From assembly GCA_032622095.1 (NCBI GenBank), contig CP136062.1, positions 18,727,739 to 18,791,738 of the forward strand: a stretch of DNA of 64,000 bases. The letters are read 5' to 3'. The translations under genes were made by a program, and so were the position numbers. This stretch comes from Siphonodentalium dalli. Taxonomy: Eukaryota; Mollusca; Scaphopoda; Gadilida; Siphonodentaliidae. The number at the start of each line of letters is the position of its first letter. Position 1 is the stretch's first letter. Below are positions 58,901-62,560 of this stretch, in pieces. The notes beneath the pieces were generated by a model that made no database searches, was not told the DNA's origin, and worked only from the letters and a program-made list of their open reading frames with translations.

Positions 58901-61586
58901 GTTTCACGCTATATCATGGTGGGAATCACTGTTCTTCCCAGAGGCATTGGGCCATGTACTTGGCTCCATCTTATCCTACTCATATGAGACATATATGAAA
59001 TATCATGTTCAGAAACATCATCCTGGGGACCCCTTTTAGTAGTAGGACCTTATACAATGCTTCATTCTAATGTTCCCATGCGCTACATCTCTACCAAGCT
59101 AGATAATGTGAAATGATAATCAATCTGGAGTAATAATTCATACATATTGGAATGAGATTGAGATAGGTAATATATATGATAAAAACCTGCAACTAGCACT
59201 AATGTTAATATATATACTAGGTAACAATTAAACCATCATGTTATAGTAACATTCTTGAATAGGTGATAAGTATTGAATATGTCTATATTACTTAACTTCA
59301 AATTATAGCTCTCTAGTTCCATGTTGAAATGTCTGCTGCACTCCTTGCATCCAAGTGTATATCCTAGCTGCCACTAATTGTCCTCATCATTGTAAAATAT
59401 AAGTATTTATTTCTTTTTAAGAAGGCAGTGGTTGGTCAATATATAAATCATTATGTCACCTCCTCATGCCAGAGGCTCATTTGATAATCAAGTTACTTGA
59501 GCCCTTTATGGTTAATTGGTTGAGATTCTATTAACACCTCTTTGTGCCCTTCATTAATTAACAGGTTCAAGTCGTCTGAACCTGTAGGCCATGTAATTAA
59601 GAAGTGGTTTGAATACAAGCTGTATTGTTACTGTGACTTAATGAACAAAGGAGTAATTTAATTATTATGTTTTATAATGTTGCCTCTAAATGACATCTCA
59701 GGTCTTATTCTAGTTCGTATGCAACAAACCCATTATTTCTGATAGTAAATAATATAATTTAGAAAACAGTTATTTACTATCGAATCTGGTCTGTCATAGA
59801 ATATTGAAACGGCTGGTGATCAGGATTATTTACATTCCATTAATGAGCTGTTAAATTAATGTATTTAATAAGTATTTAATAAGAGACAAAATGTGTATGT
59901 ATCATAATTAATTATTCAATTGTAGAGGGCGAGGTGGTTTGGCTAAAAATATGTTCAGTAACTATAATTTAAGACATTTACATATAATTTATTACAAGTG
60001 TCATTAGTCAACCCAAACCCACTCCATGGGTCTTACAGTAATGCCCTAAGTAATCGACCCCTTAACCACAGCAGAATTATGGGTAACTTTTCAGGATTTA
60101 GTCTGAAATATGGTTTGTTGCCATTCATCGGAAAACTCTCACTGAAACAAGCCATATTTCAGACTAAATCCTGAAAAGTTACCCATAATTCTGCTGTGGT
60201 TAAGGAGTTGATTACTTAGGGCATTACTGTATGTGAGCTTCTACCGGGCAAGATATGATGTCTCTTATTGTGGAGCCAAGTACAGTAATGCCCTAAATTA
60301 TCGACTCCTTAACCACAGCAGAATTATGGGTAATTTTTCAGGATTTAGTCGGAAATATGGCTTGTTGCCATTCATTGGAAAGCTCTCAATTTTTTCAGGA
60401 TTTAGTCGGAAATATGGCTTGTTGCCATTAATCGGAAAGCTCTCAATGAGAGCTTTCCGATGAATGGCAACAAGCCATATTTCCTACTAAATCCTGAAAA
60501 GTTACCAATAATTCTGCTGTGGTTCAGGAGTCGATTAGTTAGGGCATTACTGTATCATTAGGTCTTACAGAATAAATCTACATCTTCAAAGCTGGATATA
60601 GATTGTCTGACATTTGCAGAATGAGGTGCCCATAGGGTGAATTTACTGATGATATCCTGCACAGTGGGCTACCATGGCCAAATTCACCCTCTGGGGACCT
60701 CATTCAGCTTAGACCTCAACTGCTATGGGAGACCTAGGTTCAGATTGAAGTTCTGTTGAAGATGGAGAAAAATTCTGAAAATTCTGAAAATTAGGCGATA
60801 TAGAAACTGAACAGAAGTGAAAAAGTGTGTTTGACATTTGCAGATTGAGGTCCCGACAGGGTGAATATAGTGACACAGCTGGCTAGCATCACCCTCTGGG
60901 CACCTCATTTTGCTTAAGCCTTATCTTCTGGGAAGTATCTAGTCTCAAATGAACTTTGTTTTTAGTTAATTTTTCCCTTCTGTTCAGTTTCTGTATCCCC
61001 TAATTTGCAGCAGATCAATTGCATAATCGAGGTGACTAATGGGTGAACATCACCAACTTCAACTGAGGAACTCCAATCTGAATTTAATAGCCCACTGTAC
61101 AGGATTAATGAGGTCTCCAGAGGATGAATTTGATGATTCTAGCCTGCTATGCGTGATAGCATCACTAAATTCACCATCTGGGGACCTCATTCTGCAAATG
61201 ACAGGCAAACTAAACTAGGCTTTGTGAGGATTCAAACAATAAATAATAATATTTTACGTTTATAAATAATACTAATTTACAACCTGTTTATAAATAATAC
61301 TAATTTACAACCTGTTTATAAATAATACTAATTTACAACCCATTTTAAAATAATACTAATTTACAACCTGTTTATAAATAATACTAATTTACAACCCGTT
61401 TATAAATAATACTAATTTACAACCAGTTATTTCTCAGATAATTACTGTGCTATTTTTTCCAGATTCAGAGAATGAAAATAGCTCAGAACTAAATGCTCAA
61501 AAAAGTGACGACTCGTGTTCCGTACAGATTGATCTGTCTTCAGTCGGTGACTTACATCTCTACTTCCATCACACGCTACATAAAGA
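31892..61586 (+). CDS. NSMAF: Protein FAN-like gene (NSMAF homologue), partial: nine internal exons, BEACH domain
   Basis: Nine exons with consensus splice sites join in one frame, 886 nt in total: 31892-31971, 32986-33076, 37620-37683, 41549-41651, 43040-43109, 46288-46419, 47475-47517, 57661-57839 and 61463-61586. The product covers most of a BEACH domain, with hallmark strings [70 protein letters not shown] and [10 protein letters not shown], and continues toward the WD40 repeats ([11 protein letters not shown]). The order and wording match vertebrate FAN more closely than LYST, NBEA or WDFY-type BEACH proteins. FAN is a cytosolic adaptor that couples the TNF receptor p55 to neutral sphingomyelinase activation; this role is known for mammals and inferred here. 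The GRAM/PH region (upstream exons) and WD40 propeller (downstream exons) are outside the window. No frameshift or stop was seen, so the gene looks intact despite repeat-filled introns. Confidence 0.93.
31972..32228. other. Intron start, AT-rich, no feature seen
   Basis: From the exon A donor to the first inserted element the sequence is AT-rich and unique in this window. No coding signal or repeat was recognised. Confidence 0.6.
32229..32482. mobile_element. piggyBac-like double-hairpin MITE, TTAA-flanked
   Basis: 254 bp between two TTAA tetranucleotides (32225-32228 and 32483-32486). The ends are CCCTTCCATG and, inverted, CATGAAAGGG. Inside are two large imperfect hairpins, each with arms around CATTCTCTTATATATG, and the outer parts read TGCCAATGC / GCACTGGCA. 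TTAA duplication with a CCC terminus is the rule for piggyBac transposons. No transposase is present. A second copy at 57220-57611 has the same design. Confidence 0.82.
32507..32955. mobile_element. hAT-like foldback MITE, copy 1
   Basis: 449 bp with inverted ends CAAGCCTGCAAATAG / CTATTTGCAGGCTTA. Each end carries a long palindrome whose arms contain AATGAGGT and AGGGTGAATTTAGTGA and whose centre is CCCGCATAGCGGG. Flanking sequences CTTTTGTT and CTTTTTTT agree at seven of eight bases, consistent with the 8-bp target duplication seen perfectly at other copies. No transposase is encoded, so it is non-autonomous. Confidence 0.82.
32986..33076 (+). CDS. NSMAF: FAN-like exon [16 protein letters not shown] core of BEACH
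   Basis: The acceptor is TTTTTTTCTTCAG after a pyrimidine-rich tract; the donor is GTCAGT, a little weak. 91 nt, entering in phase 0 and leaving after one base (G of an Ala codon). It encodes [18 protein letters not shown] and the rest of the strongest BEACH motif. An hAT-like element ends 30 bp before the exon and a Tc1-like element starts 14 bp after its donor, so the exon sits tightly between two insertions. Confidence 0.94.
33091..33254. mobile_element. Tc1/mariner-like palindromic MITE, diverged copy
   Basis: Starts CAGTAATTCCCTAAATAATC after a TA and folds back on itself: AGCAGAATTATGGGTAA pairs with TTACCCATAATTCTGCT. The right outer end has decayed. It lies 14 bp downstream of the exon B donor. 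It belongs to the family described at 35407-35618. Confidence 0.75.
33255..34030. repeat. Three diverged copies of a block centred on GTCACGTG
   Basis: The palindrome CACGTG occurs at 33449, 33624 and 33844. Each time it is followed by similar text (GACCTTGGCGTCCATGTTGAA in the middle copy, at 33627) and preceded by short runs such as AATAGGT or ATAAGT. The spacing is 175 and 220 bp. The flanks contain microsatellite-like TATATA. This is probably an old tandem or interspersed repeat. CACGTG is a bHLH-type E-box core, but function is not shown. Confidence 0.5.
34031..34400. repeat. Tandem repeat of about 145 bp, 2.5 copies
   Basis: Units begin with AATAGGTATAAGTATCTTATG near 34037, 34184 and 34328, followed by GCCGCAGGCGCCCCTCGATC and a GTTAGTTACCCA stretch. 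Because the period is close to a multiple of three, the minus strand stays open for 145 codons, but the product is just the repeat translated and has no recognisable domain. Confidence 0.75.
34401..34696. other. Intron, no feature seen
   Basis: Unique-looking sequence between the 145-bp repeat and a fragment of a Tc1-like element. Nothing was recognised. Confidence 0.5.
34697..35116. mobile_element. CGTCC-family interspersed element with Tc1-like fragment at its left edge
   Basis: The first 35 bp (34697-34731) are the right end of the Tc1-like palindrome (AAGGAGTC, GGCATTACTGTA). Then comes an element starting TACCTCCTGTAACAAAGTTA, with ATTGGAATCAGCTC, TCCGTCTGTCCATGG, a GAGTTATCCCCCTTTTCAAC core and an end of CCGCCTCTAG followed by T. 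The same start and end are seen at 40297-40888. Two tandem copies of AAAATGTCTACACTTAATGT lie at 35012-35065. The family is discussed in findings. Confidence 0.6.
35117..35404. other. Intron, no feature seen
   Basis: Unique-looking sequence. No exon, repeat or RNA gene was recognised. Confidence 0.5.
35407..35618. mobile_element. Tc1/mariner-like palindromic MITE, near-perfect copy
   Basis: 212 bp flanked by TA on both sides. The two halves are almost perfect reverse complements, starting CAGTAATGCCCTAAGTAATC, then CCACAGCAGAATTATGGG, GGATTTAGTCGGAAATATGG and TTGCCATTCATC, meeting at GAGAGC/GCTCTC-like bases. CAGT ends with TA duplication are typical of Tc1/mariner elements. The element has no coding capacity; transcripts would form a hairpin of about 100 bp. 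Confidence 0.85.
35621..36494. other. Intron, no clear feature
   Basis: AT-rich sequence. There is an inverted pair near 36349-36420 (ATTTGATTCACAACTCG and CGTTGTGAATCAAAT) that could form a stem of about 14 bp. An 80-codon open frame at 35844-36086 has no recognisable domain and is considered chance. Confidence 0.5.
36495..37330. mobile_element. CGTCC-family element with three 192-bp internal repeats
   Basis: It begins GTCCCCCGACG, followed by a short hairpin (GACGTTTCCGTC) and a CGTC-rich run at 36545-36586. Then come three tandem copies of a 192-193-bp module starting GAGATTGGGTACCTTCATGG at 36586, 36778 and 36971; each contains ATTTGCAACATC and TTTTCGACTTAGAAAATTTG. It ends near CGGGGGACATGTGGTCTGCG, which is roughly the inverse of the left end. 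A related right end is at 48755-48790. No protein is evident; the 140-residue frame across the repeats is a repeat translation. Confidence 0.65.
37419..37619. repeat. 55-bp tandem repeat x4 containing the exon C acceptor region
   Basis: CATCTGC recurs at 37419, 37474, 37529 and 37584, followed each time by GATCATGATCGGCCTCT or a one-base variant, a TTATTTT tract, and GGCTTCACAGTATG or a variant. Only the last unit reads TTTTAG before CTTCACAG, giving the acceptor used by exon C. The other three read TTTAC, TTTGG and TTTGG at that point. Confidence 0.85.
37620..37683 (+). CDS. NSMAF: FAN-like exon [19 protein letters not shown]
   Basis: The acceptor is TTATTTTAG just before CTTCACAGTATG; the donor is GTTAGT at 37684. 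64 nt. Entering with two bases completes the Ala codon from exon B, and leaving with AA gives Asn when joined to the next exon. The alternative acceptor CACAG eight bases downstream would break the frame. The acceptor region is the last unit of a 55-bp tandem repeat. Confidence 0.9.
37727..37776. mobile_element. hAT-like MITE fragment
   Basis: Only one palindrome arm remains: GGGCTAGCATCACTAAATTT followed by ACCTCTGGGGACCTCATTCT. It matches the right half of the hairpins in the other hAT-like copies. Confidence 0.65.
37790..38194. mobile_element. hAT-like foldback MITE, degraded copy
   Basis: It runs from CAAGCCTGAGTTTAGTGTGC to GGGCACACTAATCTCGGGCT, with both internal palindromes present but mutated. 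The left palindrome keeps CAGAGGGTGAATTTAGTGAT. No target duplication is clear. About 405 bp. Confidence 0.7.
38240..38362 (+). pseudogene. Possible C2H2 zinc-finger fragment
   Basis: One frame reads [16 protein letters not shown] and then [14 protein letters not shown] followed by KKPYK. The order C-x2-C-x4-F-x4-L-x-H, with the upstream L-Q-R-H and a KPY linker-like end, resembles C2H2 zinc fingers, but the second His of the finger is missing and there is no long open frame around it. It could be a decayed gene or transposon piece captured in the intron, or chance. Confidence 0.35.
38503..38865 (-). pseudogene. LINE reverse transcriptase C-terminal fragment with (GATACA)n tail
   Basis: On the minus strand one frame from about 38862 down to the TAG near 38594 reads [30 protein letters not shown], then [15 protein letters not shown] and an [11 protein letters not shown] end. 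The pattern FFPRT-x-x-DWN-x-L is the usual C-terminal signature of CR1/L2-like and related LINE polyproteins. The minus strand then continues into four GATACA units (plus strand TGTATC, 38516-38530), the short-repeat tail of such elements. It is 5'-truncated and cut off near the hAT-like element at 38882. Confidence 0.75.
38882..39413. mobile_element. hAT-like foldback MITE, copy with perfect 8-bp duplication
   Basis: 532 bp from CAAGCCTGCAAATAGGGTG to CTATTTGCAGGCTTG. Flanked by CTTACTCA at 38874-38881 and again at 39414-39421, a perfect 8-bp target duplication as expected for hAT transposons. It contains the two terminal palindromes and a central part with CATAATCGAGGTGCCCAATG, and an extra inverted segment near 39230-39290. 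Confidence 0.85.
39596..39886. mobile_element. hAT-like MITE, partial copy
   Basis: It has the inner part of the family only: GGCTAGCATC, ACCCTCTGGGGACCTCATTC, then CATAATCGAGGTGCCCAATG, ending near GCAGATTGAGGTCCCCAATG. The outer ends are missing. Confidence 0.65.
39884..40212. repeat. Tandem repeat of about 155-160 bp, two copies
   Basis: GAAAACATTAGAAATGTGTT begins at 39884 and 40039, with a third truncated start at 40199. Each unit holds TTTGTCCCACGATTCCCAAA (or one change) and TCTGTCTCGGTCTGTCCCAG. No coding meaning is seen. Confidence 0.75.
40236..40296. repeat. Detached unit of the exon D acceptor repeat
   Basis: One copy of the 49-bp unit (ATTCAAATGGTTTCTGTTCT then AGCCTGATGGAGTTGTGACA) lies left of the CGTCC-family element. 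The array therefore was split by that insertion. Confidence 0.75.
40297..40888. mobile_element. CGTCC-family element inserted in a tandem array, ends ATACCCC and CTCTAG
   Basis: It begins ATACCCCCCCGCAACGAAGT with a small hairpin, followed by GGTATACTGGAGTCAGCTCG and a CGTCC-rich run. Two tandem modules of about 170 bp carry GTGGAGTTATCCCCCTTTTT, CGACTTAGAA, GCAACAT and GTCCGAGC. It ends GGACAGTCACACCTCTAGT. Bases on either side rejoin as TTTATT + CAAATG, the uninterrupted array sequence, so the insertion boundaries are defined to within a base or two. A CTAG end and insertion at T/T recall Helitron2/Helentron non-autonomous elements; this is tentative. Confidence 0.6.
40889..41548. repeat. 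49-50-bp tandem repeat, about 13-14 copies, ending in the exon D acceptor
   Basis: CCAGTCCGATGG or CCAGTCTGATG recurs at 40905, 40954, 41004, 41054 and so on to 41545. Each unit has TATTTATTCAAATGATTTCT followed by GCTCCAG or GTTCCAG. The final CCAG at 41545-41548 is the acceptor of exon D, and TCTGATGG after it is both repeat and coding sequence. Unit length changes from 49 to 50 where GTGTCCGTTT replaces GTGACCATT. Confidence 0.92.
41549..41651 (+). CDS. NSMAF: FAN-like exon [11 protein letters not shown] segment
   Basis: The acceptor is TTTCTGTTCCAG, the donor GTGAGT at 41652; 103 nt. The first base completes an Asn codon, and the exon ends in phase 0. It encodes [20 protein letters not shown] and a FLHHSG end. 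The acceptor and first bases of the exon (TCTGATGG) belong to a 49-50-bp tandem repeat that precedes it. Confidence 0.92.
41690..42530. repeat. Tandem repeat of about 160 bp, 5-6 copies
   Basis: GACACCATGAC recurs near 41699, 41842, 42001, 42161 and 42321, with a variant at 42445; the central spacing is 160 bp. Units contain GATGCCTGCCTACATA, TATAATATCTAAGTATGCAA, TTTCCAATAGGAAAC and TGACTCTCATTCTTACC. The first and last units are shortened. It lies in the intron after exon D. Confidence 0.9.
42531..43030. other. Intron with a short GC-rich repeat at 42835-42930
   Basis: Most of the stretch is unique. Between 42835 and 42930 there are about five imperfect copies of GTTGTCCGGGCTGGTCGAG, which is unusually GC-rich for this region. 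CCCGCCTCTAGT at 42930-42941 resembles the right end of the CGTCC-family elements. Confidence 0.5.
43040..43109 (+). CDS. NSMAF: FAN-like exon [10 protein letters not shown] segment
   Basis: The acceptor is TTTATCCACAG, the donor GTAAGT; 70 nt. It enters in phase 0 and leaves after one base. It encodes [11 protein letters not shown] and [10 protein letters not shown], matching the FAN/BEACH V-x-LPPWA motif. A 33-bp tandem array begins about 50 bp after the donor. Confidence 0.93.
43155..43632. repeat. 33-bp tandem repeat, about 14 copies
   Basis: The unit contains CACTATTATAGTTAAATATT and ACAGTGCCAAATA. Some units lose two bases (AAATATACAG), and one short duplication (ACTATTATAGTTAAAT twice) is at 43327-43355. 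It begins about 50 bp after the exon E donor. Confidence 0.92.
43684..43834. mobile_element. hAT-like single-hairpin MITE with 8-bp duplication
   Basis: 151 bp, one nearly perfect palindrome from CAAGCCTTGAAATAGGGTG to CTATTTCAAGGCTTG. It is flanked by ACACCATC at 43676-43683 and 43835-43842. It is the shortest member of the family and could be a deletion derivative in which the two terminal hairpins collapsed into one. Confidence 0.88.
44058..44137. mobile_element. piggyBac-like MITE hairpin fragment
   Basis: It contains one hairpin of the family at 32229 and 57220: CCAATGCATTCTCTTATATA, a centre of GGCAACCTATGGTCGACTCG, and the inverse arm ending GCATTGGCACAGGGTAA. A weaker inverted pair AGAGCCCC/GGGGCTCT lies just upstream (43914-43972). 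The left half and terminal TTAA are not clear. Confidence 0.6.
44280..45040. repeat. Diverged tandem repeats of about 175-190 bp, 4 copies
   Basis: The phrase TCTCAATGAAAATTGGTATG with a following GATGTTCA-like string recurs at about 44450, 44645 and 44816, together with TTTTCCATTC, TTATTCATCTTTGTTTATCT and GAAAATGTTGGC. A related piece is at 50640-50775. A homopolymer of G interrupts the first copy. This looks like the body of a CGTCC-family element. Confidence 0.65.
44340..44358. repeat. Poly-G tract of about 19 bases
   Basis: An uninterrupted run of G after ATTTT. The exact length may be unreliable because long homopolymers are error-prone in sequencing. It is able to form G-quadruplex structures in principle. 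Confidence 0.8.
45041..46079. mobile_element. CGTCC-family element with four 170-bp modules, ends TACGCCC/GGGCGTA
   Basis: It begins TACGCCCTTTTTGAAAAAAG, then a CTGTCCGTC-rich run (45080-45150). Four modules start AACATTTTTGGTTTCCGA near 45150, 45320, 45490 and 45661, each with TAACTCCAGTTTGGATTATT, TTTCCCAGCTAAAGATACAG and CCCTTTTTCGACTTAGAATT. A fifth truncated module follows (45925-46030). The phrase CGAAATGGCTAAAGGGCGTA appears twice at the right side (45908 and 46037), and the end has GCCACGCCC. Minus-strand and plus-strand open frames of 60-75 codons here are repeat translations. Confidence 0.7.
46105..46255. mobile_element. Tc1/mariner-like MITE, copy with deleted right inner arm
   Basis: 151 bp with TA on both sides. 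The left half is complete (CAGTAATGCCCTAAGTAATC to TCGGAAAGCTCTC), but the right half starts only at ATAATTATGCTGTGG, so about 60 bp of the second arm are missing. It ends 32 bp before exon F. Confidence 0.82.
46288..46419 (+). CDS. NSMAF: FAN-like exon [21 protein letters not shown] segment
   Basis: The acceptor is TTTTTAATTTCAG, the donor GTAAGA; 132 nt, entering with two bases and leaving after one. It encodes the S-P-x-D-F-I-x-K start and the helix with [15 protein letters not shown], one of the most conserved BEACH segments. It begins 32 bp after a Tc1-like palindrome. Confidence 0.95.
46513..46617. mobile_element. Tc1/mariner-like MITE, right half only
   Basis: It begins GAGAGCTTTCTGATGAATGG and runs to GGGCATTACTG followed by TA. 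The left arm is absent, so this is a half copy. It lies about 95 bp after the exon F donor. Confidence 0.78.
46620..47474. other. Intron, no clear feature
   Basis: AT-rich sequence with some low-level similarity to repetitive phrases (GCCATCTTGGATTTT, CATCCATCCATCTG). No exon or terminal repeat was recognised before the acceptor of exon G. Confidence 0.5.
47475..47517 (+). CDS. NSMAF: FAN-like exon [11 protein letters not shown] segment
   Basis: The acceptor is TTTTATTTTCAG, the donor GTAAGA; 43 nt, a micro-exon in size. It enters with two bases and leaves with two (AG of a Ser codon). It encodes [14 protein letters not shown]; vertebrate FAN has a similar F-x-x-LTYEG segment here. A 34-bp tandem array begins close after the donor. 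Confidence 0.9.
47545..48013. repeat. 34-bp tandem repeat, about 13-14 copies
   Basis: The unit contains GATATCCTGTCTGATTTAAC and ACCCCTAAATTAAA; the 47766 and 47800 starts give the period. The variants are CCG for CTG and ACCACT for ACCCCT. The first units, nearest the exon G donor, are the most diverged. Confidence 0.92.
48014..48620. repeat. CGTCC-family-like modules, 3-4 diverged copies
   Basis: AACTTGGCACAGATATGAAC / TGTCAA-like strings recur with CATGGGAACCTG, CACCTGCGATTTTGAGT, GGAGTTATTGCCCTTTTTCG and CGAC(A)TAGAAT. The middle copy is shortened. Copies start near 48027, 48188, 48330 and 48495. The modules resemble those at 40297-40888. Confidence 0.65.
48621..49600. other. Intron with an element end at 48755-48790, otherwise no feature
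   Basis: TCCCACCTTCGTCGGGGGAC at 48747 and GTTAGCGACCTTTTATTT resemble the right end of the element at 36495-37330. The rest is AT-rich and unique, and no exon was found. Confidence 0.5.
49601..49853. mobile_element. hAT-like foldback MITE with perfect 8-bp duplication
   Basis: 253 bp from CAAGCCTTGAAATAGGGTG to CTATTTCAAGGCTTG, flanked by ATTGTATT at 49593-49600 and 49854-49861. It holds two hairpins back to back with only ACATCTCAGCAG-like bases between them, so it is intermediate between the long (449-532 bp) and single-hairpin (151 bp) forms. Confidence 0.88.
49928..50490. mobile_element. CGTCC-family-like element with three 165-bp modules
   Basis: It begins TTATCCCCCGCCAAATTGAA with inverse TTTGCGGGGGATAT (a hairpin), then GGGTTCCGTCCATCCGGACG. 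Three modules repeat ACGGATTTCAAAGAT, TATATGAGTTCAC, AGTATCTAGAA, GTTCGCAAACCAGGTCCGGC and TTATTGGACTTTGTTTATT. The right end is unclear. Confidence 0.6.
50491..50802. other. Intron, repeat relic
   Basis: It holds a T/G-rich stretch (50500-50525) and one piece of the repeat described at 44280-45040 (GTTTGGGTTTTCCATTCTAG, TCTCAATGAAATTTGGTATG). No gene was seen. Confidence 0.5.
50886..51837 (-). mobile_element. Copia-type LTR retrotransposon remnant with 5-bp target duplication
   Basis: Inserted in a satellite 2 unit and flanked by CAGAG at 50881-50885 and 51838-51842. The left LTR (3' LTR of the minus-strand element) is 50886-51052, 167 bp, plus-strand TGTACTTAC to ATTAACA, giving TG...CA ends. 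A polypurine tract lies next to it (plus strand CTCCTCTCTCTCTGTCTTTT, 51053-51072). The right LTR is represented only by its last 61 bp (51777-51837), which match 50992-51052. Most of the internal region and part of the 5' LTR are deleted; only an RNase H segment remains. Five-base duplication and the RNase H type indicate Ty1/Copia. Confidence 0.88.
51152..51776 (-). pseudogene. Copia RNase H domain fragment
   Basis: The minus strand is open from 51688 to 51152 (178 codons). It contains [19 protein letters not shown] (first catalytic Asp), [20 protein letters not shown] (catalytic Glu), ITDYHSLYD (Asp) and [14 protein letters not shown] (last Asp): the four acidic RNase H positions and the ADxLTK motif of Ty1/Copia polyproteins. 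Upstream bases to about 51776 still encode the connection region ([14 protein letters not shown]) in another frame, so a frameshift lies near 51685-51700. In an intact element this domain degrades the RNA of the RNA-DNA hybrid during reverse transcription. Here it lacks gag, protease, integrase and the reverse transcriptase core, so it is a relic. Confidence 0.88.
57220..57611. mobile_element. piggyBac-like double-hairpin MITE, TTAA-flanked, inside satellite 2
   Basis: 392 bp between TTAA at 57216-57219 and 57612-57615. The terminal inverted repeats are CCCTTTACCCAACA and TGTTGGGTAAAGGG. Inside, CCGGCCAAAACCGGCC lies near the left, and two large hairpins (57368-57437 and 57519-57585) have arms of about 30 bp around CATTCTCTTATATATGCGAG. 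Removing the element and one TTAA restores the satellite unit text GTGGTTAAACGGTTATCCCA exactly. The element has no coding capacity. Confidence 0.88.
57661..57839 (+). CDS. NSMAF: FAN-like exon H: end of [15 protein letters not shown]
   Basis: The acceptor is GCTTCACTTTTCAG, the donor GTGAGC; 179 nt, entering with one base (Ser codon AG|T) and leaving after one base. It encodes [13 protein letters not shown], then the BEACH terminal motif [17 protein letters not shown], then a Pro/Ser/Thr-rich linker ([11 protein letters not shown]). The upstream intron of 10.1 kb is mostly satellite 2. Confidence 0.94.
57840..60030. other. Intron of about 2.2 kb, no clear feature
   Basis: AT-rich, unique-looking sequence after the exon H donor. 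Two short stems were noted: ACAGGTTCA/TGAACCTGT near 59562-59586, and GATAGTAAAT/ATTTACTATC near 59741-59782. Open frames of 60-97 codons (57704, 58848) run from the exon or are AT-rich chance frames without a recognisable domain. Confidence 0.5.
60036..60229. mobile_element. Tc1/mariner-like palindromic MITE
   Basis: 194 bp with TA on both sides, CAGTAATGCCCTAAGTAATC to GGGCATTACTG. The arms pair over most of their length; the centre has lost about 20 bp of the right arm (from CTCACTGAAACAAGCC). Confidence 0.84.
60283..60552. mobile_element. Tc1/mariner-like MITE with internal duplication
   Basis: 270 bp with TA at both sides, 53 bp after the previous copy. The left arm contains a tandem duplication of about 58 bp: TTTTTCAGGATTTAGTCGGA to GAAAGCTCTCAA occurs twice (60332-60390 and 60391-60448). 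The right arm is complete. Two full copies this close suggest a favoured target or local hopping. Confidence 0.82.
60600..61222. mobile_element. hAT-like MITE, degraded long copy
   Basis: It holds both hairpins and the central part of the family in mutated form: TCTGACATTTGCAGAATGAG at the left, GCATAATCGAGGTGACTAAT in the middle, and CTCATTCTGCAAATGACAGG at the right. The left end is lost, and no target duplication is seen. Confidence 0.7.
61246..61436. repeat. 28-bp tandem repeat, about 7 copies
   Basis: The unit is TAAATAATACTAATTTACAA followed by CCTGTTTA or small variants (CCCATTTT, CCCGTTTA, CCAGTTAT). The array ends about 27 bp before the exon I acceptor. Confidence 0.92.
61463..61586 (+). 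CDS. NSMAF: FAN-like exon I: linker to WD40 propeller
   Basis: The acceptor is TATTTTTTCCAG, the donor GTGAGT at 61587; 124 nt, entering with two bases and leaving with two (GA of a Glu codon). It encodes an acidic linker rich in Ser, Glu and Asp, then VQIDLSSVG and [11 protein letters not shown], corresponding to the LQLHEHYKIHKE region just before the first WD40 repeat in vertebrate FAN. The second half of this exon and its donor are repeated seven more times downstream with a 138-bp period. Confidence 0.88.

Positions 61587-62560: not shown

What the first reader, a model, noticed from the sequence alone, without database searches (positions are those of the whole stretch)
61505..62560. 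An exon half with its donor splice site amplified eight times
Seen directly: 138-bp units starting every 138 bp from 61507 to 62473 each carry the last 80 bp of FAN exon I, its GTGAGT donor and intron sequence. Copies remain nearly exon-perfect, and several differences are synonymous. Each unit also has TCTTCAG before TCGGTGA; joining exon H to that AG keeps the frame and would end at the copy's own donor. So each copy could be a shortened alternative exon I. That last step is inference.
Basis: partly seen in the sequence, partly recalled or inferred. Interest (0 to 1): 0.85.

Follow-up and report, generated by a model that had tools for sequence, protein, structure and literature searches.

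The report
Repeat array straddling an exon edge
A short DNA stretch covering the end of one exon and the start of the next intron has been copied head to tail eight times in a FAN-like animal gene; the extra copies look like neutral repeat DNA rather than working spare exons, so this is a striking but fairly ordinary case of repeat growth.

Summary
Eight units of exactly 138 bp (starts 61507 to 62473) each carry the last 80 nt of a FAN-like (BEACH-WD40) exon, its GTGAGT donor and intron sequence. The frame claim is right too: exon H joined to TCTTCAG|TC stays open into exon J.

The extra units show no sign of coding use. Among 14 units from two copies of the locus, exon and intron halves are equally variable (0.0389 vs 0.0391, 10 units in register). 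Of 17 distinct exon changes 12 are nonsynonymous, as expected without constraint. From the real acceptor, each of the 16 other donors runs into an in-frame stop.

A second, inverted copy of the locus, beyond a 100-N gap, has six units; it is probably the other haplotype. Arrays fill about a quarter of the 50.5 kb scanned, and many differ in copy number between the two copies.

Best reading: a two-tier minisatellite grew across an exon-intron boundary. Unit 1 is the working exon end; the others are intronic fragments and decoy donors. No RNA data were available, so splicing itself is untested.
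The parts
57661..57839 (+). exon H, end of the BEACH domain; acceptor TTCAG|TATT, donor ACA|GTGAGC
   Evidence: Pfam Beach E 3.7e-07 in the frame 57608-57997; boundaries and open join
61258..61428 (+). 28-bp array, 6.1 copies, TACTAAT in six units, ends 34 bases before exon I
61463..61586 (+). exon I, 124 nt, BEACH-WD40 linker and lead-in of the first WD40 repeat; its last 80 nt are the exon half of unit 1
   Evidence: weak WD40 match of the I-J join
61507..61644 (+). unit 1 (working exon end, donor GT at 61587)
61645..61782 (+). 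unit 2, donors at 61725 and 61754; identical to unit 1 over the 138 bases compared
61783..61920 (+). unit 3, donors at 61863 and 61892
61921..62058 (+). unit 4, donors at 62001 and 62030
62059..62196 (+). unit 5, donors at 62139 and 62168
62197..62334 (+). unit 6, donors at 62277 and 62306
62335..62472 (+). unit 7, donors at 62415 and 62444
62473..62593 (+). unit 8 (last, merges into the degenerate tail), donor at 62553
62545..62737 (+). degenerate 29-bp units, two further GAGTGAGT donors (62703, 62732)

Best explanation
A variable minisatellite that straddles an exon-intron boundary. Step 1 (inferred from the nested structure): a 28-29-bp piece with the exon end, its donor and the first intron bases was repeated; degenerate copies remain at 62545-62737. 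Step 2 (inferred): an exchange joined the end of such a unit to exon sequence at AAAGTGA, present in both, giving a 138-bp unit. Step 3 (copy-number difference shown, mechanism inferred): unequal exchange or slippage spread it to 8 units here and 6 in the other copy of the locus. In the cell (inferred), exon I is defined by its own acceptor and the nearest donor (61587), and units 2-8 leave with the intron. Rare use of a downstream donor would read GAG TGA in frame and give a non-productive transcript.
For: Exact 138-bp period with 29-bp sub-units. Pi 0.0389 in the exon half vs 0.0391 in the intron half, 11 of 80 vs 8 of 58 variable columns, in 10 of 14 units. 12 nonsynonymous of 17 distinct changes in 14 units vs 0.747 expected at kappa 2, binomial P 0.78. 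Unit 1 has 0 of 80 differences between the two copies; units 2-8 vs 2-6 differ by 3.8 of 80 on average. H-I-J joined at donor 61587 is open and resembles a WD40 start. 16 of 16 other donors give an in-frame stop. 20 arrays of period 20 or more cover 12,829 of 50,495 bases, so arrays are common here.
Against: AG and GTGAGT are kept in 14 of 14 units, although an invariant AG has a chance of 0.64 given 16 of 80 variable columns. The join of H to the 43-nt piece is open in 8 of 8 units. Identity of unit 1 between copies is weak evidence: 1 of 35 other cross-copy pairs is also identical. No RNA was seen, so the use of any donor is untested, and the order of steps rests on repeat structure alone.
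Confidence: 0.85

Rival explanations
1. Each unit is a shortened alternative exon I (43 nt) spliced from exon H to exon J, giving a protein without 27 linker residues.
For: In frame and open in 8 of 8 units; AG and donor kept in 14 of 14 units.
Against: No coding constraint; acceptor 9 of 16 pyrimidines vs 11-12 at real ones; the eight products are nearly the same; inclusion after exon I gives a stop.
Confidence: 0.06
2. The array is a dial on output: downstream donors divert some transcripts to an in-frame stop, and array length sets how many.
For: 16 of 16 downstream donors give the stop; array length differs between copies, 17 vs 13 GAGTGAGT.
Against: No sign of selection on the units; other arrays nearby vary as well; no expression data.
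Confidence: 0.05
3. The array is an assembly error.
For: The assembly has a 100-N gap and noisy repeat 15 kb downstream.
Against: A second contig beyond the gap holds an array of the same structure with its own variants and a different number of units.
Confidence: 0.02
4. About the second copy: it is a true tail-to-tail duplicate gene rather than the other haplotype. The reading of the array itself would not change.
For: Both copies have intact exons H, I and J; no other N run in the 134,000 bases examined; probes at C2:18600000 and 18400000 showed no mirrored partner.
Against: The mirror centre falls on a 100-N gap next to a noisy contig end; the mirror reaches C2:18700000 with 90-97% identity.
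Confidence: 0.25

Closest known systems
Variable internal tandem repeats at exon-intron boundaries in human segmental duplications (PMC2812944; abstract and passages seen)
   Same: Minisatellite-sized repeats at an exon-intron boundary whose number differs between near-identical gene copies; there they can give alternative splicing and new introns.
   Different: Here the unit is 138 bp with 29-bp sub-units and brings a whole donor each time; the two copies are probably alleles; no transcript evidence; a FAN-like gene of an unnamed animal.
Intron gain by tandem genomic duplication (PMC3443670; passages seen)
   Same: Tandem copying of an exon piece supplies extra splice sites.
   Different: That route uses a copied AGGT as donor and acceptor; the units printed hold no AGGT, and an existing intron was only lengthened.
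Dual-specific splice sites of polyubiquitin UBC (PMC10809524; abstract and outline seen)
   Same: A tandem array that repeats splice sites once per unit.
   Different: UBC units are coding and joined through AGGT sites; here read-through meets stops.

Membership tests
Variable tandem repeats at exon-intron boundaries (PMC2812944) | tandem repeat overlaps an exon-intron boundary | tested here: met
   boundary inferred from sequence
Variable tandem repeats at exon-intron boundaries (PMC2812944) | unit number differs between near-identical copies of the gene | tested here: met
   8 units vs 6
Variable tandem repeats at exon-intron boundaries (PMC2812944) | copies lie in a segmental duplication | tested here: inconclusive
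   inverted second copy across a 100-N gap, probably allelic
Variable tandem repeats at exon-intron boundaries (PMC2812944) | altered transcripts | not testable with these tools
   no RNA data held
Alternative or mutually exclusive exon clusters (definition recalled) | copied exons show coding constraint or directed diversification | tested here: not met
   12 of 17 changes nonsynonymous; exon and intron halves equally variable
Alternative or mutually exclusive exon clusters (definition recalled) | each copy has its own acceptor and donor and an open join | tested here: inconclusive
   open in 8 of 8, acceptor weak
Intron gain by tandem genomic duplication / dual-specific sites | copied AGGT used as donor and acceptor | tested here: not met
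   no AGGT in the units printed
BEACH-WD40 genes of FAN/NSMAF type | BEACH exons followed by WD40 exons | tested here: met
   two window regions over the Beach cut-off (46230-46463 and 57608-57997), three weaker ones below it; WD40-like I-J join, each single repeat match weak
BEACH-WD40 genes of FAN/NSMAF type | closer to FAN than to other BEACH genes | not tested

The most novel reading that the evidence does not exclude
Exon I is bracketed by two splice-signal arrays, six branch-point-like TACTAAT upstream and 17 near-identical donors on its downstream side; allelic changes in array length shift the balance between productive splicing and in-frame-stop transcripts, so the repeat acts as a length-coded dial on FAN output.
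Probability: 0.05. Interest if true: 0.65.

Novelty: new member of a known kind. Interest (0 to 1): 0.3.

Why it matters
It is a natural set of up to 17 near-identical donors behind one good acceptor, and so a test of how a cell picks a splice site when U1 pairing cannot tell the candidates apart, and of how repeat growth is tolerated at an exon edge. It also cautions that exon-like copies in a young array look conserved simply because they are recent.

Tried and rejected
RNA structure hiding the decoy donors: 276 nt from unit 1 on fold no better than chance, 193 of 200 shuffles fold at least as well.

TACTAAT as an enriched branch-point signal: 10 TACTAAY in 26506-64000, 6 of them in the 28-bp array, against a mean of 11.2 in 50 mononucleotide shuffles; no excess overall.

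Coding constraint on the copies: not found. For the pi comparison 4 of 14 units were dropped (copy 1 unit 8; copy 2 units 1, 4, 6) because their intron halves are out of register; the N/S count used all 14.

Extent of the inverted homology: all five 3-kb probes were searched. C2:18700000 has inverted partners at C2:18853301-18858278. C2:18900000 gave inverted matches at C2:18065525-18072637, far from the simple mirrored place, and its own place was not listed. C2:18600000 and C2:18400000 gave dispersed repeats, no mirrored partner. C2:19100000 gave same-strand partners at about 19.30 Mb. Only the first clearly supports the mirror.

Copy-number comparison: not every array differs. The 57-bp (2.0 vs 2.0) and 103-bp (1.9 vs 1.9) arrays do not, and several arrays of copy 1 have no array in copy 2.

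Species: a chiton was considered from the number of contigs alone and dropped. PMC12005716 (passages) serves only as an example of high heterozygosity in molluscs (4.12% in Callochiton).

Literature: one search found 0 papers; some searches gave listings. None of the listed titles or abstract starts in these seven searches concerned such an array in FAN/NSMAF; one search listed 15 of 722, one search listed 12 of 18, one search listed 5 of 6, and the library lacks most subscription journals.

Errors of mine: one search set the starts of exons H and J one base off and gave false stops; one search corrects it. The H and J pyrimidine counts are replaced by those. My note says the 68-bp array ends 25 nt before exon H; the sequence printed shows 18 nt.

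Full report
What was checked. The 138-bp array is real: 7.9 copies, 96% matches, 0% indels at 61502-62593; unit starts 61507, 61645 ... 62473 with seven spacings of exactly 138. All eight units keep TCTTCAGTCGGTGA and GTGAGT. The unit contains 28-29-bp sub-repeats: in seven of eight units a second GAGTGAGT follows 29 bp after the first, and behind unit 8 come degenerate 29-bp units to 62737. GAGTGAGT occurs 17 times on the + strand of 26506-64000, all here, against 0.4 expected from mononucleotide shuffles.

Gene model. The frame 57608-57997 matches the end of the Pfam Beach model (30.3 bits, cut-off 26.8) and 46230-46463 matches it strongly (65 bits). Weaker Beach matches lie at 31891-32031, 32980-33087 and 41541-41663, below the cut-off (32716-33096 again below it); one over the cut-off lies at C2:18724578, just upstream of the window. 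Exon H is 57661-57839, exon I 61463-61586 (124 nt) and exon J L003:4113-4171, that is 68113-68171 in window numbering continued past the end. Joined, they are open. The product matches the C-terminal ends of the neurobeachin and LRBA chains weakly over H (E 0.0034 and 0.0077). Repeat-propeller chains match over the I-J junction (E 3e-07 to 1e-05 for whole chains, but only 3 to 4 bits for any one repeat in the two chains whose alignments were printed). This fits donor 61587 as the working one but is no proof.

Frame tests. Exon H joined to TCTTCAG|TC gives a 43-nt piece, open into exon J, in 8 of 8 units; the protein would lack 27 residues (124 less 43 nt). Added after exon I, the piece of each of the seven downstream units leads to a stop. 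From the real acceptor, 16 of 16 other donors give the same in-frame stop.

A second copy. A DNA search found the exon and array on the other strand 21.6 kb downstream. The locus is mirrored around a 100-N gap at C2:18804846-18804945, and the left side ends there in a noisy simple repeat. It is the only N run in the 134,000 bases examined. A probe at C2:18700000 has inverted partners at C2:18853301-18858278 (90-97%); other probes were less clear. I read the second copy as the other haplotype placed inverted during scaffolding (about 75%), otherwise as a tail-to-tail duplicate (about 25%). Exon H differs at 1 of 179 sites (silent), the first 44 nt of exon I at 1, the last 80 nt at 0, and exon J at 0 of 59. 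Its array has 6 units, spacings 137, 138, 138, 167, 138; the 167-bp unit has one more 29-bp sub-repeat, and 4 of 6 units keep TCTTCAGTCGGTGA in full.

Test of constraint. Over all 14 units there are 17 distinct changes from unit 1 in the 80-nt exon half, 5 synonymous and 12 not, against an expected nonsynonymous share of 0.73-0.78 (binomial P 0.78). In the 10 units in register, pairwise diversity is 0.0389 in the exon half and 0.0391 in the intron half. AG and GTGAGT are kept in 14 of 14 units, but an invariant AG has a chance of 0.64 given 16 of 80 variable columns. Unit 1 is identical in both copies while other cross-copy pairs differ by 3.8 of 80 on average; as 1 of 35 of these is also identical, this is only suggestive. 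In copy 1, units 1 and 2 are identical over the 138 bases compared, so turnover is recent and includes the real exon end.

Surroundings. From 26506 to 77000, 20 arrays of period 20 or more cover 12,829 of 50,495 bases. Arrays found in both copies often differ in number: 68-bp 79.5 vs 7.2, 49-bp 13.6 vs 5.7, 34-bp 13.4 vs 29, 193/192-bp 2.9 vs 6.7, 55-bp 4.1 vs 3.1, 28-bp 6.1 vs 5.2; the 57-bp and 103-bp arrays do not differ. Against that background one array across an exon edge is not surprising.

Mechanism. The nested repeat suggests growth first of a 29-bp unit made of the exon end and its donor, then a join at AAAGTGA to exon sequence, then spread of the 138-bp unit; this order is inference. 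The cell most likely pairs the acceptor of exon I with the nearest donor (inference). The inner candidate acceptor has 9 of 16 pyrimidines against 11, 12 and 12 at H, I and J; 69 of 144 YAG sites in the following intron, the array's own included, reach 9, while 10 reach 12. Since the donors are alike, U1 pairing cannot choose among them; position and exon definition must (inference; classic work with duplicated splice sites is recalled, not read).

Place among known things. Tandem repeats at exon-intron boundaries that vary between gene copies, with effects on splicing, are described in human segmental duplications (PMC2812944, abstract and passages). Intron gain by tandem duplication (PMC3443670, passages) and dual-specific sites in UBC (PMC10809524, abstract and outline) use AGGT, which the units printed lack. 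This is therefore a large, donor-rich member of a known kind. The lack of RNA evidence is the main limit.

Noticed in passing
C2:18804846-18804945, between L004:3108 and L004:3207: 100-N gap at the centre of a long inverted duplication of the locus; probably a retained second haplotype placed inverted.
   Followed up: partly
window 51841-57219; L005:1607-2094: 68-bp array with 79.5 units in one copy and 7.2 in the other; in the second copy it runs to 18 nt before exon H.
   Followed up: partly
window 61258-61428: 28-bp array with TACTAAT in six units, ending 34 bases before exon I; 5.2 units in the second copy, four with TACTAAT.
   Followed up: partly
window 1-26505: 26.5 kb of another 68-bp satellite between Beach-matching exon hits; the mirrored hits of the second copy lie only about 2.4 kb apart.
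   Followed up: no
window 27954-29096 and 29810-31660: Retrotransposon-like frames: endonuclease (PF03372, PF14529) and reverse transcriptase (PF00078).
   Followed up: no
C6:964381-964986 (-) and C6:1334573-1335178 (+): Another Beach match present on opposite strands with the same score; perhaps a further inverted duplicate in the assembly.
   Followed up: no
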